From a virus: a stretch of 23,273 nucleotides of DNA. The DNA lies in the IMG/VR virus record IMGVR_UViG_3300048928_000634, positions 1 through 23,273 of that record; one strand, written 5' to 3'. This document shows, piece by piece, positions 8,038 through 23,273 of this stretch; positions within the stretch are counted from its first letter, which is position 1, and every line of letters begins with the position of its first letter. The notes below the pieces were generated by a model. It was not told where the DNA came from and searched no databases. It saw nothing but the letters and a program-made list of their open reading frames with translations. The position numbers were made by a program, and so were the translations under genes.

Positions 8038-8479
8038 GCTGTCAGCATTTGATACCCGTCTCGCCGGGCTGATTGCGGCACTCTCACCGCAAAGCCGGAA
8101 GGTGATGGCAGCGACCATTGCGAAGCGTCTGCGCAAACATCAGCAGCAGCGCATTAAGCAGCAGATCACGCCGGAGGGGCAACCCTTCACGCCGCGCCGC
8201 CCGCAGTCTCTAAGAGCAAAGAAAGGCCGCATTAAGCGGGAGATGTTCGCCAAGCTGCGCACGGCCAAATACATGAAGGCCAAAGGCACCACTGACGACG
8301 CGGTGGTGGAATTCACCGGTCAGGTTCAGCGCATGGCGAAGGTGCATCAGTACGGGCTGCGGGATCGCCCGTCCGTCCGTGCAAAGGAAATGCAATATCC
8401 GGCGCGCCCGTTGTTGGGGCTGGACGCGGAAGATATGAAGATTGTTGAGGAGGAGTTGATGAATATGCTAACAAGTTAA
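8030..8479 (+). CDS. S: Tail completion protein gpS
   Basis: This 149-residue protein matches P2 gpS (150 residues), the tail completion/neck protein family related to phage virion morphogenesis proteins. Typical blocks are RLAGLIAALSPQSRKVMAATIAKRLR in part, RIKREMFAKLRTAKY, KVHQYGLRDRPSVRAKEMQYPARPLLG, and an acidic end. It starts within the end of R (8-base overlap). It is the last gene of the O-to-S operon; the AT-rich accessory block begins directly after its TAA. Confidence 0.95.
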   Translation: MSELSAFDTRLAGLIAALSPQSRKVMAATIAKRLRKHQQQRIKQQITPEGQPFTPRRPQSLRAKKGRIKREMFAKLRTAKYMKAKGTTDDAVVEFTGQVQRMAKVHQYGLRDRPSVRAKEMQYPARPLLGLDAEDMKIVEEELMNMLTS

Positions 8480-8507
8480 CTTATCGCGAAAATTATCGTT
8501 TAACCCG

Positions 8508-8536
8508 TTGACATTGGAGGTAAAGATCCAGATTCT
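8508..8536 (+). promoter_or_regulatory. Possible private promoter of the DUF4062 gene
   Basis: A perfect -35 hexamer TTGACA lies at 8508-8513. A weak -10 candidate GATTCT lies 17 bases further on (8531-8536). An alternative -10, TACAAT, lies at 8552-8557 but without a good -35; it would leave a very short leader, which would fit the poor ribosome site of the gene. The location in the S-V gap, outside the late gene order, is where a moron promoter would sit. This is sequence resemblance only. Confidence 0.35.
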
Positions 8537-8569
8537 GTTTTAATAATTTCCTACAATCGGCCATTCTTG

Positions 8570-9517
8570 ATGAAGAAAAAATTACAAGTTTTCGTTTCCT
8601 CAACATTTAAAGATCTTAAAGAGGAGAGGCAAGCGGCGGTTAGCGCTATATTAATGTTAGGTCATATTCCTGCGGGTATGGAGCTGTTTACAGCAAATGA
8701 TAAAAGTCAGTGGGAAACCATTGAACGATGGATTGATGAGTCTGATGTTTATATCCTTATTCTAGGTGGCAGATATGGGAGTATTGATGAGGCCACTGGG
8801 AAAAGTTATACAGAAAAAGAATTTGATTACGCGGTTAAAAAGAAAAAACCTTTATTTTCAATAGATATAAACGAAAAGGCTTTAAATGAAAAAATACAAA
8901 AACTAGGAGCAGATGTTATTGAGCTTGAACATCAAAAAGAACTTAAAGCTTTTAGAGCAAAAGTACATAAAAAAATGATTTCGTTTTATGACGATATCAA
9001 AGATATCCAGCTCGCCATCATGAAAAGTCTCCCTCCAATTGAATCTCGTAATGATATATCAGGGTGGATTTCAGGTGCTGAAGTGCCAGACACCGAGCCT
9101 TTGATTAACAAAATCACCTCTCTCATTGCTGAGAACGATAAACTCAAAAAAGAAAACTCTAAGCTATTAGGGTTACAAGGTAAGCAAACAGCCAATAAGA
9201 GTGAACACGCAGAAACTTTCGAAAAACTCTCAAAAATAAAAATTAAAGTGCCAGATATAATAACTAAAAAAGGAGAGGTGGAATATACTTTACTAGATGT
9301 TTTTCATTCTATTTGGAACCTGCTCATTGAGGGAGTAACAAATCAAAGAGGAACTTCTGAGGAGAACAGTTTCATTTTTTATAACGTTTGCCCTCAATTA
9401 CAAATCTACGGGATTGTAATTAATGAAAAAGTTCAGAAAGTAGCATGGACTCGTTACACATTGACCAATAAAGGTCAGCAATTTGTTGCCTACCTTAACG
9501 ATAAAATACTCAAGTAA
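8570..9517 (+). CDS. DUF4062 (TIR-like) domain accessory protein; candidate moron/defence gene
   Basis: This 315-residue protein is not part of the P2 core. Residues 4-95 are a DUF4062 domain, seen as LQVFVSSTFKDLKEER (5-20), GMELF (36-40), the Asp-led strand DVYILILGGRYGS (59-71) and SYTEKEFDYA (79-88). DUF4062 is a TIR-like alpha/beta domain found at the N terminus of many STAND and signalling proteins. A coiled coil follows (about 178-205), then a C-terminal region (222-315) ending with a winged-helix-like YTLTNKGQQFVAYL. No NTPase, nuclease or membrane segment is visible. The gene is markedly AT-rich with AAA, ATA and AGA codons, unlike its GC-rich neighbours. It sits between S and V, where P2 carries orf30. 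The ATG at 8570 lacks a good ribosome site; a TTG at 8567 is also possible. A role in phage exclusion is inference only. Confidence 0.9.
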   Translation: MKKKLQVFVSSTFKDLKEERQAAVSAILMLGHIPAGMELFTANDKSQWETIERWIDESDVYILILGGRYGSIDEATGKSYTEKEFDYAVKKKKPLFSIDINEKALNEKIQKLGADVIELEHQKELKAFRAKVHKKMISFYDDIKDIQLAIMKSLPPIESRNDISGWISGAEVPDTEPLINKITSLIAENDKLKKENSKLLGLQGKQTANKSEHAETFEKLSKIKIKVPDIITKKGEVEYTLLDVFHSIWNLLIEGVTNQRGTSEENSFIFYNVCPQLQIYGIVINEKVQKVAWTRYTLTNKGQQFVAYLNDKILK

Positions 9518-9534
9518 ATCTTCCCTTCAAGGGT

Positions 9535-9555
9535 GTTGTACCAACGATAGCCAAC
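9535..9555 (+). promoter_or_regulatory. Candidate Ogr-binding box for the V operon late promoter
   Basis: The sequence is GTTGT-ACCAACGATAG-CCAAC, the same 21-bp arrangement as the P/O and FI boxes, and it shares GTTGTRCC with both. It lies after the DUF4062 stop and 46 bases before V, so the accessory gene was inserted upstream of an intact late-promoter element. The known P2 PV promoter is in this interval. An activator box centred at -55 would place the transcript start almost at the V start codon. Confidence 0.5.
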
Positions 9556-9569
9556 CCGCCTCAAATTGT

Positions 9570-9599
9570 ATGCCGCCTGACAGGGCGGCATTCTTTTAT
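9570..9599 (+). terminator. Hairpin terminator before V
   Basis: The 8-bp perfect stem ATGCCGCC (9570-9577)/GGCGGCAT (9584-9591) has a 6-base loop and is followed by TCTTTT. It would end transcripts from the O-S operon and the DUF4062 gene. It lies between the candidate late box and the V start codon, so a V transcript must begin after it or read through it. Confidence 0.65.
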
Positions 9600-9601
9600 C
9601 C

Positions 9602-10243
9602 ATGAATAAATCCATCCCCAACAACGACATTCCGCGCCTGCTGCGCAATCTGATCCGCATTGGCACCGTTGCCGAGGTGGATTTAGTTGCGGGCACCTGT
9701 CGCGTGAACACCGGCGGCAACGTCACCGACTGGCTGCACTGGCTGACCTCCCGCGCAGGGCGCTCGCGTTCCTGGTGGGCACCGTCTACCGGTGAGCAGG
9801 TTTTATTGTTTTGCCTGGGCGGTGAGCTGGATACCGCCTTTGTGATGCCGGGCGTTTTCTCTGATGAATTCCCTGCACCGTCGGCGTCAGCTGAAGCCGT
9901 ACACGTCACTTTCCCTGACGGCGCGGTGATCGAGTATGAACCCAAAACCGGCGCACTGCTGGCAACCGGTATCAAGTCCGCCACGGTAAACGCGTCGGAT
10001 AAGGTGGCAGTCACTGCCCCGCTGATCACCTGCACGGCGAAAACCCGCATCACCCTCGACGCGCCGGAGGTGGTCTGCACCCACAAGCTCACCACGGGCA
10101 GTCTGGAGGTGAAACAAGGCGGCACGATGACCGGAAATCTCACCCATTCCGGCGGCAGCCTGACATCAAACGGGGTTGTTGTGCATACCCATAAACACGG
10201 CGGCGTCCAGACGGGCGGCGGTCAGACGCAGGTGCCTTCATGA
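9602..10243 (+). CDS. V: Baseplate spike protein gpV
   Basis: This 213-residue protein (P2 gpV is 211) forms the trimeric needle at the baseplate centre that pierces the outer membrane. Residues 12-95 are an OB-fold domain (TDWLHWLTSRAGRSRSWWAPSTGEQVL in part, then GGELDTAFVMPG). A triple-stranded beta-helix shaft follows, and the tip contains VHTHKHGG. In P2 gpV the histidines of this H-x-H motif bind an iron ion at the apex; H195 and H197 are present here. The ATG at 9602 matches P2 but has no clear ribosome site. The gene overlaps W by 4 bases (ATGA). Confidence 0.96.
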   Translation: MNKSIPNNDIPRLLRNLIRIGTVAEVDLVAGTCRVNTGGNVTDWLHWLTSRAGRSRSWWAPSTGEQVLLFCLGGELDTAFVMPGVFSDEFPAPSASAEAVHVTFPDGAVIEYEPKTGALLATGIKSATVNASDKVAVTAPLITCTAKTRITLDAPEVVCTHKLTTGSLEVKQGGTMTGNLTHSGGSLTSNGVVVHTHKHGGVQTGGGQTQVPS

Positions 10244-22940: not shown

Positions 22941-23273
22941 GTGAAAAGTAATCATGTTGATGAGCATGCTACATGCGGATTCTGTGATAGTAAATTAAAG
23001 GAAAACAGTACCCTATGTCCTTATTGTGGTGCTGAAATAATCATGGCCTATATTGACAGACCTACGAGGAAGTTAATTTTATATTTGCGGATCATCTTGA
23101 TTTTTATTTCAGCTCTTTTAATCCTGTTACTCTACCAAAACTATAACTTTGTTAATCTATCTGTCATTTTAGCGATACCTTTATTCTTACTTGCCTGGGT
23201 TATGCCATGGTTATTTTTCAGAATAAAAAATAAGGATAACTATATTTGGAGGAAAAAGAACCCGCTGATTTAG
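22941..23273 (+). CDS. Small zinc-ribbon membrane protein, function unknown
   Basis: This 110-residue protein is complete, with TAG at the window end. It starts at a GTG with AGAGG 5 bases upstream. The N terminus is a zinc ribbon with C12-x2-C15 (TCGFCDS) and C26-x2-C29 (LCPYCGAE). Two hydrophobic segments follow, at about 47-64 (LYLRIILIFISALLILLL) and 70-93 (VNLSVILAIPLFLLAWVMPW), and then a basic tail. The predicted topology puts both ends in the cytoplasm. I do not recognise a specific family. The AT-rich composition and position beyond the attachment region suggest host or earlier acquired DNA rather than P2 core. Confidence 0.75.
   Translation: MKSNHVDEHATCGFCDSKLKENSTLCPYCGAEIIMAYIDRPTRKLILYLRIILIFISALLILLLYQNYNFVNLSVILAIPLFLLAWVMPWLFFRIKNKDNYIWRKKNPLI

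What the first reader, a model, noticed from the sequence alone, without database searches (positions are those of the whole stretch)
8480..9601. DUF4062 (TIR-like) moron at the P2 orf30 position
Seen: a single AT-rich gene between S and V, with a DUF4062 N terminus (FVSSTFKDLKEER, DVYILILGGRYGS), a coiled coil and a winged-helix-like end. It has a TTGACA element before it, a hairpin terminator after it, and the V late box kept intact. Known: P2-like phages carry variable accessory genes, often exclusion or defence genes, at fixed sites, and S-V (orf30) is one. DUF4062 is a TIR-like sensor/effector domain usually found in larger signalling proteins. Inference: a compact stand-alone DUF4062 protein could sense infection by other phages through its C-terminal part and act through the TIR-like part. 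This is the best candidate here for an undescribed system.
Basis: partly seen in the sequence, partly recalled or inferred. Interest (0 to 1): 0.72.

Follow-up and report, generated by a model that had tools for sequence, protein, structure and literature searches.

The report
Prophage-borne TIR-like suicide gene (Swarozyc-type)
A P2-like bacterial virus carries, in a gap between two tail genes that its relatives fill with ever-changing cargo, a small gene that looks like a recently described anti-virus suicide enzyme, but with a different sensor half.

Summary
In detail: a 315-codon, AT-rich ORF (8570-9517) sits between S and V of a P2-like phage and is a clear DUF4062 protein. DUF4062 is no longer undescribed: a May 2026 preprint (PMC13174449) reports that bacterial DUF4062 proteins ('Swarozyc') are TIR-like NADases; KpSwz causes abortive infection when its C-terminal winged domain binds a phage portal. 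The window protein keeps the catalytic Glu (E84, equivalent to KpSwz E97; kept in 104 of 105 homologues aligned), and its predicted model has the same layout: TIR-like domain, helical stalk, winged C-terminus. It belongs to a separate subfamily; its sensor half is at best remotely related to KpSwz's and lacks the KpSwz Trp-Tyr tip, so its trigger may differ. The TIR half is nearly frozen while the sensor half changes faster. S-V is a cargo hotspot in this phage group: 82 of 88 distinct intervals are filled, 10 of them by DUF4062 genes from several branches of the family; 9 of 20 other cargo proteins scanned match known or candidate defence models. The 'terminator' and late box belong to the site, not the gene. 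Verdict: most likely a Swarozyc-type abortive-infection gene, a new member of a known kind; function untested.

The parts
8570..9517 (+). DUF4062 gene, 315 aa, Swarozyc-type (window subfamily)
   Evidence: ORF; PF13271 E=2.5e-31; PHROG_15411 E=7.7e-64; KpSwz (PDB 10wc) E=4.8e-28
8570..9043 (+). TIR/NDT-like domain, residues 1-158
   Evidence: model; VIA-align rows DNPH1, MilB, RUN1, SPARTA, SARM1, Z 11.8-13.4 over residues about 3-162
8819..8821 (+). codon of Glu84, equivalent of the KpSwz catalytic E97
   Evidence: aligned to the Ala of the KpSwz E97A chain; kept in 43 of 43 rows of A1 and in 104 of 105 rows of a wider alignment; that E97 is needed for defence and NADase activity is from PMC13174449
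9095..9235 (+). helical stalk, residues 176-222
   Evidence: DSSP on model
9236..9514 (+). C-terminal auxiliary (presumed sensor) domain: beta hairpin plus winged helix, residues 223-315
   Evidence: residues 214-315 predicted alone, pLDDT 95.7, pTM 0.85; nearest solved folds MarR/PadR/RosR winged helices, Z up to 7.2, 78 of 102 residues
8508..8513 (+). TTGACA element upstream of the gene; promoter not shown
   Evidence: sequence; no sigma-70-like pair found; kept in L003/L004, not in L005
9535..9555 (+). GTTGT-N12-CAAC element, probable activator box of the V late promoter (part of the site, not the cargo)
   Evidence: a GTTGT-N10..14-CAA element lies near V in 70 of 82 filled intervals against 1% of 1640 random pieces of the same intervals; present in empty sites; the role is recalled knowledge of P2, not tested
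9570..9591 (+). hairpin followed by T-rich tail, upstream of V (part of the site, not the cargo)
   Evidence: present in empty site L104 and, with one change, L120
8030..8479 (+). gene S (tail completion; name from gene order, recalled P2 map), left border of the cargo site
   Evidence: ORF; relatives
9602..10243 (+). gene V (baseplate; name from gene order, recalled P2 map), right border of the cargo site
   Evidence: ORF; relatives

Best explanation
The gene is a Swarozyc-type abortive-infection gene carried as a moron by a P2-like prophage. Inferred working: the lysogen makes an autoinhibited DUF4062 oligomer; when another phage infects, a phage structural protein (the portal in the one system studied) is bound by the C-terminal winged domain, several copies are gathered, the helical stalks re-align the TIR-like heads, and these hydrolyse NAD+ through Glu84, stopping the cell before the invader can multiply. 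The host population and the resident prophage gain. Shown here: domain, catalytic residue, predicted architecture, purifying selection with a nearly frozen catalytic half and a faster-changing C-terminal half, and position in a turnover hotspot shared with known and candidate defence genes. Inferred from the preprint: NADase activity, and sensing by the C-terminal domain. Open: the trigger, because the sensor half is of a separate subfamily without the KpSwz portal-contact residues; and, if it is a portal, why the phage's own portal (gpQ, 1-1032) does not set it off.
For: DUF4062 match; KpSwz match E=4.8e-28 over residues 3-195; Glu84 kept in 104 of 105 homologues, the exception a truncated frame. 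Preprint: five DUF4062 proteins tested, strong and broad defence most notably by two; KpSwz needs E97 and its auxiliary domain, depletes NAD+, is activated by the Bas14 portal. TIR/NDT fold and winged C-terminus in the models. Window against L003: residues 1-100 dN 0 at dS 0.49, residues 217-315 dN/dS 0.26, whole gene 0.11. S-V gap at least 300 bp in 120 of 132 loci against 0 of 1273 for ten other neighbouring gene pairs summed and 6 of 110 for I-H; 9 of 20 other cargo proteins scanned singly match PADLOC models at E<=1e-10. DUF4062 genes at this site fall in several separate branches: the tree needs at least 5 gains or losses of that location, 4 forced by supported branches.
Against: No experiment on this protein. 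The last 118 residues alone match no PDB chain at E<=10, and the sensor profile matches the KpSwz-type one only weakly (HHalign probability 47.5%, P 1.9e-4). The KpSwz hairpin-tip residues W238/Y239 are absent. C-terminal fold matches are middling (Z below 8). No promoter found by the scan. PADLOC of 2023 gives only a weak ThsB match (E 0.003). 11 of 20 cargo proteins scanned have no PADLOC match at E<=1e-10, four of the 9 matches are to candidate (PDC) models, and some cargo is not defence (arsenic genes).
Confidence: 0.8

Rival explanations
1. Same enzyme and purpose (a sub-case of the best explanation, not exclusive of it), but the trigger is not a portal: the window-type sensor binds another phage component, for example another ring-forming head or tail protein.
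For: The window subfamily is a separate branch (100/100 support, 14 rows); sensor halves are at best remotely alike; the tip 228-236 (PDIITKKGE) has no aromatic residue where KpSwz has W238/Y239; a P2-like phage would have to tolerate its own portal.
Against: Same predicted hairpin-plus-wing layout; the preprint reports flexible portal contacts, so the tip residues need not be kept; relatives of the KpSwz type also vary there, by eye.
Confidence: 0.4
2. A nucleotide or nucleoside hydrolase (DNPH1/MilB-like) that alters the nucleotide pool of infecting phages rather than NAD+.
For: The best VIA-align rows are DNPH1 and MilB (Z 13.0-13.4, 114-132 residues aligned), slightly above TIR domains (11.8-12.9).
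Against: Z values under 1 apart are tied; Foldseek ranks TIR domains first; [quoted passage not shown]
Confidence: 0.07
3. A DNA-binding regulator or DNA sensor through its winged helix.
For: C-terminal fold resembles MarR/PadR/RosR; the domain as a whole is mildly basic (pI 8.7).
Against: The helix before the wing (264-279, EENSFIFYNVCPQLQI) has 0 Lys/Arg and 2 Glu, unlike a DNA-reading helix; Z below 8; KpSwz uses this kind of fold for portal binding and ring contacts.
Confidence: 0.05
4. A lysogenic-conversion gene unrelated to defence, or cargo without benefit.
For: S-V cargo includes non-defence genes such as ArsB/ArsC; no direct test of this gene.
Against: No amino-acid change in residues 1-100 between window and L003 at dS 0.49; DUF4062 genes of several branches at the same site.
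Confidence: 0.08

Closest known systems
Swarozyc (KpSwz; PDB 10wc/11cq/11cv; preprint PMC13174449)
   Same: DUF4062 TIR-like N-terminus with the catalytic Glu, helical stalk, winged C-terminal domain (predicted here), single gene of similar length, mobile.
   Different: Separate subfamily; the sequence match to KpSwz runs over residues 3-195 only; sensor half at best remotely alike, no W238/Y239 equivalent; carried by a P2-like phage at S-V. L015 shows a KpSwz-type gene at the S-V site of a diverged P2-like phage.
P2 morons at the orf30 (S-V) site, e.g. phage R18C ORF16 (PMC6823313, passages seen)
   Same: Same interval, accessory gene, variable between relatives.
   Different: A 741-bp hypothetical gene for which that paper found no motif or function.
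P2 defence hotspots at A-Q (Rousset 2022, PMC9122126) and at fun (Vassallo 2022, PMC9519451), passages seen
   Same: Small exchangeable defence genes between conserved P2 genes; phage AC1 carries a TIR protein at A-Q.
   Different: Another interval. The passages I read name A-Q and fun, not S-V; 'DUF4062' does not occur in the main text of PMC9122126.
SpbK (PMC12847820, abstract start in a search listing only)
   Same: TIR-domain NADase, abortive infection; interacts with the SPbeta protein YonE (YonE as portal is recalled).
   Different: Canonical TIR, other sensor; no sequence link tested here.

Membership tests
Swarozyc (DUF4062 antiphage NADase) | DUF4062 domain | tested here: met
   PF13271 E=2.5e-31, 108.2 bits, cut-off 24.7
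Swarozyc (DUF4062 antiphage NADase) | catalytic Glu equivalent to KpSwz E97 | tested here: met
   Glu84 aligns with the Ala of the E97A chain; 43 of 43 rows of A1 and 104 of 105 rows of a wider alignment keep Glu (two frames under 100 aa left out)
Swarozyc (DUF4062 antiphage NADase) | TIR-like fold of the N-terminal domain | tested here: met
   predicted model: TIR/NDT-fold matches, Z 11.8-13.4; Foldseek first hits plant TIR domains, E 3.3e-5; prediction, not experiment
Swarozyc (DUF4062 antiphage NADase) | helical stalk and C-terminal HTH/winged auxiliary domain of the KpSwz kind | tested here: inconclusive
   layout and winged fold predicted (Z up to 7.2); homology to the KpSwz-type domain weak (HHalign probability 47.5%, groups of 16 and 20 rows chosen by me); KpSwz entries did not appear in the fold results, whose library ends on 8 April 2026
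Swarozyc (DUF4062 antiphage NADase) | often lies beside defence genes or in a defence hotspot (the preprint: about 20% in predicted islands, over half beside a defence gene) | tested here: met
   in the window it is alone between S and V; the same site in relatives holds known and candidate defence genes
Swarozyc (DUF4062 antiphage NADase) | NAD+ hydrolysis, abortive infection, activation by a phage portal | not testable with these tools
   needs bench work
Thoeris ThsB (TIR) | match to ThsB models and a ThsA partner beside it | tested here: not met
   only E 0.003 to ThsB; single gene between S and V
P2 tail gene (essential structural gene) | constant presence in relatives | tested here: not met
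   6 of 88 intervals empty, 10 of 88 with DUF4062
P2 orf30-site moron | accessory gene between S and V, variable among relatives | tested here: met

The most novel reading that the evidence does not exclude
S-V is a third defence hotspot of P2-like phages in which NAD-cleaving DUF4062 suicide enzymes with different sensor halves are swapped in and out, and the window subfamily senses a phage component other than the portal, which would let a P2-like phage carry the enzyme without being killed by its own portal.
Probability: 0.35. Interest if true: 0.65.

Novelty: new member of a known kind. Interest (0 to 1): 0.45.

Why it matters
It places a very recently described class of suicide enzyme, whose human relative TEP1 is an active NADase of the RNA vault according to the preprint, inside a temperate phage, and raises a question that can be tested directly: how a phage carries an enzyme of a class known to be fired by phage portals without firing it by its own. 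The window, L003 and L005 genes form a natural series with a nearly constant enzyme half and a changing sensor half, suited to mapping what the sensor reads. The S-V survey also points to many uncharacterised candidate defence genes at one small, easily cloned site.

Tried and rejected
Thoeris ThsB membership: PADLOC match only E 0.003 and no partner gene. NCBIfam gave only two matches far below their cut-offs. Phage records of GenBank: only 2 of 50,697 hold a relative at E<=1e-5, both Acinetobacter, 25% over 63% of the query; near DNA matches of the 5-kb neighbourhood in E. coli: 3 of 5426 genomes, baseplate genes only, 20% of the query. The host was not identified. The C-terminal 118 residues alone matched no PDB chain at E<=10. 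The KpSwz structures could not be compared with the models: they do not appear, whose library ends on 8 April 2026, and that says nothing. Foldseek with the C-terminal model gave no hit at E<=0.001. BFVD: best hit E 1.1e-8, a phage 'deoxyribosyltransferase', rmsd 21, not informative. A search for the system name without its accented letter found 0 papers although the preprint is held. The first tree count compared S-V rows only with A-Q rows and is not used; one search replaces it, with L008 left out for its long branch; the counted changes may be gains or losses of the location. dS for window against L005 is partly saturated (1.7 for the whole gene, 3.07 for residues 1-100), so those ratios are rough. 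The 88 distinct intervals come from the loci nearest to the window's S and V (best 80 each of 447 and at least 598 confirmed) plus loci brought in by the DUF4062 scan, so they describe this phage group, not all P2-like phages; L015 was found through its DUF4062 gene (9 of 87 without it), and L003 and L004 carry the same gene. Loci of one contig can appear twice in the 132 and 1273 counts. One filled interval (L248) holds only ORFs of 60-65 aa. My hairpin pattern was strict and was met in only 56 of 82 filled intervals. The 20 cargo proteins scanned singly were picked mostly by size out of 82 representatives; the others were scanned only jointly, which tells families but not which protein.

Full report
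What is there. The interval between S (stop at 8477-8479) and V (ATG at 9602) holds one ORF of note, 8570-9517 (+), 315 aa. GC falls from 0.56-0.63 in the flanking windows to 0.34-0.36 in the gene. It is a DUF4062 protein (PF13271, E 2.5e-31), belongs to PHROG_15411 of unknown function (E 7.7e-64), and matches one solved protein, KpSwz (PDB 10wc, 11cq, 11cv), E 4.8e-28 over residues 3-195. The contig is a 23,273-base virus record; an IMG/VR record of 37.6 kb has the same DUF4062 protein at 100% and begins with what look by eye like a carbonic-anhydrase gene and a phage integrase. The host was not identified.

What is known. Nine papers of the held library contain the word DUF4062; by title and start of abstract only one treats it in bacterial defence, a preprint of 5 May 2026, PMC13174449. 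I read parts 1-4 of 6 of its text (summary, introduction, results, discussion and part of the references), not its figure legends or supplements. It reports that DUF4062 is a family of TIR-like NADases; that five DUF4062 proteins from defence islands were tested in E. coli, with strong and broad defence most notably by two of them; that KpSwz needs E97 and its auxiliary domain, depletes NAD+ and acts by abortive infection; that Bas14 escapers carry portal mutations; and that 13 auxiliary domains (HTH/winged fold) form a crescent around the portal, with W238 and Y239 at a hairpin tip.

Is the window protein one of these? The KpSwz chain in the PDB is the E97A mutant: its Ala lies where L090 (Klebsiella sp. 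BIGb0407, match to KpSwz over its whole length, E 1.3e-106) and the window have Glu (window Glu84). That Glu is kept in 43 of 43 rows of alignment A1 and in 104 of 105 rows of a wider alignment, the exception being a truncated frame (two frames under 100 aa left out). AlphaFold2 gives mean pLDDT 89.9 (pTM 0.57): TIR-like domain 1-158, helix 176-222, then hairpin, helices and wing. VIA-align rows over residues about 3-162 are DNPH1, MilB, RUN1, SPARTA and SARM1, Z 11.8-13.4; Foldseek ranks plant TIR domains first (E 3.3e-5). The C-terminal 102 residues predicted alone (pLDDT 95.7, pTM 0.85) resemble MarR/PadR/RosR winged helices (Z up to 7.2, 78 residues), a middling score.

How it differs. Relatives of the window type (41-100% identity over residues 1-283 or more) occur in P2-like phages and other viral contigs (L002-L007), a gammaproteobacterial and a Thalassospira MAG, a Peptococcaceae MAG, Sporosarcina, Bacillus and Paenibacillus and on plasmids of Neorhizobium and Acinetobacter. 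In a tree of 43 proteins the window type forms its own branch (14 rows, 100/100), apart from the KpSwz type. The sensor halves of the two types align only weakly (HHalign probability 47.5%, P 1.9e-4), though in the same order of elements. KpSwz's W238/Y239 have no counterpart: the window tip (228-236) is PDIITKKGE. Within the KpSwz type the tip also varies, by eye, while L015 has Asp-Trp-Tyr in that region. Hence the trigger cannot simply be carried over from KpSwz. A DNA-reading role is unlikely: the helix before the wing has no Lys or Arg.

Selection. Window against L003 (86% identity): residues 1-100 have 22 synonymous codon changes and no amino-acid change; residues 217-315 have dN/dS 0.26, the whole gene 0.11. 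Against L005 the ratios are 0.02 and 0.27, with saturated dS. The enzyme half is held nearly constant while the sensor half drifts or is selected to change; all ratios are below 1, so positive selection is not shown. For L005 the backbone genes differ by dS about 0.2-0.37 (S, next to the site, 0.66) but DUF4062 by 1.7, so the two copies probably did not simply descend with the backbone.

The site. Loci with S and V (136 loci, 88 distinct intervals) are empty (66-79 bp with the S stop; 6 distinct intervals) or hold 0.7-4.6 kb of AT-rich sequence (82; median GC 0.36; largest ORF + in 37 and - in 45). In loci from the S and V scans the S-V gap is at least 300 bp in 120 of 132; ten other neighbouring pairs sum to 0 of 1273, and I-H has 6 of 110. 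DUF4062 genes fill 10 of the 88: window type (L002, L003, L004, L005, L156), KpSwz type on the other strand (L015), a 449-462 aa type (L247, L251) and a diverged type (L134, L141); Pfam confirms the domain in L015, L134, L156 and L247. The tree needs at least 5 gains or losses of the S-V location, 4 forced by supported branches. In L004 the interval holds DUF4062, then remnants of V (39 residues) and S (86 residues), then a 376-aa gene on the other strand, then the intact V: probably the trace of a second exchange through the flanking genes. Of 20 cargo representatives (of 82) scanned singly against PADLOC, 9 match at E<=1e-10 (Old, AbiU, PDC-S06, RT-Toprim, PtuA, PDC-S59, PDC-S19, PDC-S45, Hp2; four of them candidate models) and 11 do not; the joint Pfam scan also shows ArsB/ArsC, which are not defence. 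KpSwz-type DUF4062 genes also sit beside the portal gene of P2-like phages (L025, L270), the side of the known A-Q hotspot.

Site elements. The empty site L104 contains the hairpin and the GTTGT-N12-CAA element, and L120 the same with one change in the hairpin; the element lies near V in 70 of 82 filled intervals against 1% of 1640 random pieces. They are V's leader. That P2 late promoters carry a TGT-N12-ACA box is recalled, and the match here is imperfect. No sigma-70 promoter was found for the DUF4062 gene.

Prior art on the site. Rousset 2022 (PMC9122126, passages) describes the A-Q hotspot; Vassallo 2022 (PMC9519451, passages) adds one at fun; PMC6823313 (passages) names S-V/orf30 as one of three moron sites. 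Searches listed no paper that I could recognise, by title and start of abstract, as describing S-V as a defence hotspot; Odegrip 2006 and the review by Christie and Calendar were not read.

Conclusion. Most likely a Swarozyc-type abortive-infection gene (0.8), with the trigger open. It is a new member of a known kind; the part worth following is the divergent sensor in a phage that itself makes a portal, and the S-V site as a source of candidate defence genes.

Noticed in passing
S-V intervals of L103-L260: S-V is a hypervariable cargo site in this phage group: 82 of 88 distinct intervals filled, 112 clusters of ORFs of 60 aa or more (small ones may be spurious), 11 of 20 representatives scanned singly without a PADLOC match at E<=1e-10.
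   Followed up: partly
L128:1067-4012 (-): 982-aa NACHT/STAND-like protein as S-V cargo.
   Followed up: no
S-V cargo set A2 (ArsB, ArsC, HTH_5 matches): Arsenic-resistance genes among S-V cargo, so the site is not for defence alone; the cluster shared by L110 and L153 has fitting gene sizes but was not scanned singly.
   Followed up: no
L271 6562-11892 (record G004): Beyond the putative gene A, on the portal side, lie a 299-aa gene with a sub-threshold DUF5677 match, a GAF-EAL protein and a GGDEF protein: cyclic-di-GMP genes in the A-Q region of a relative.
   Followed up: partly
L025 902-1921; L270 1501 onward: KpSwz-type DUF4062 genes beside the portal gene Q of P2-like phages.
   Followed up: partly
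L247, L251 S-V cargo: DUF4062 proteins of 449-462 aa with a different C-terminal half; L247 has no other Pfam match at E<=0.001.
   Followed up: no
plasmids collection: 164 of 186 plasmid records with a DUF4062 relative are Staphylococcus; many of the 40 listed are about 20 kb.
   Followed up: no
I-H interval of related phages: 6 of 110 loci have 300 bp or more between I and H (up to 2.8 kb); a possible minor cargo site.
   Followed up: no
window 22941-23273: Start of a protein with a sub-threshold zinc-ribbon match (PF13240), cut by the end of the window.
   Followed up: no
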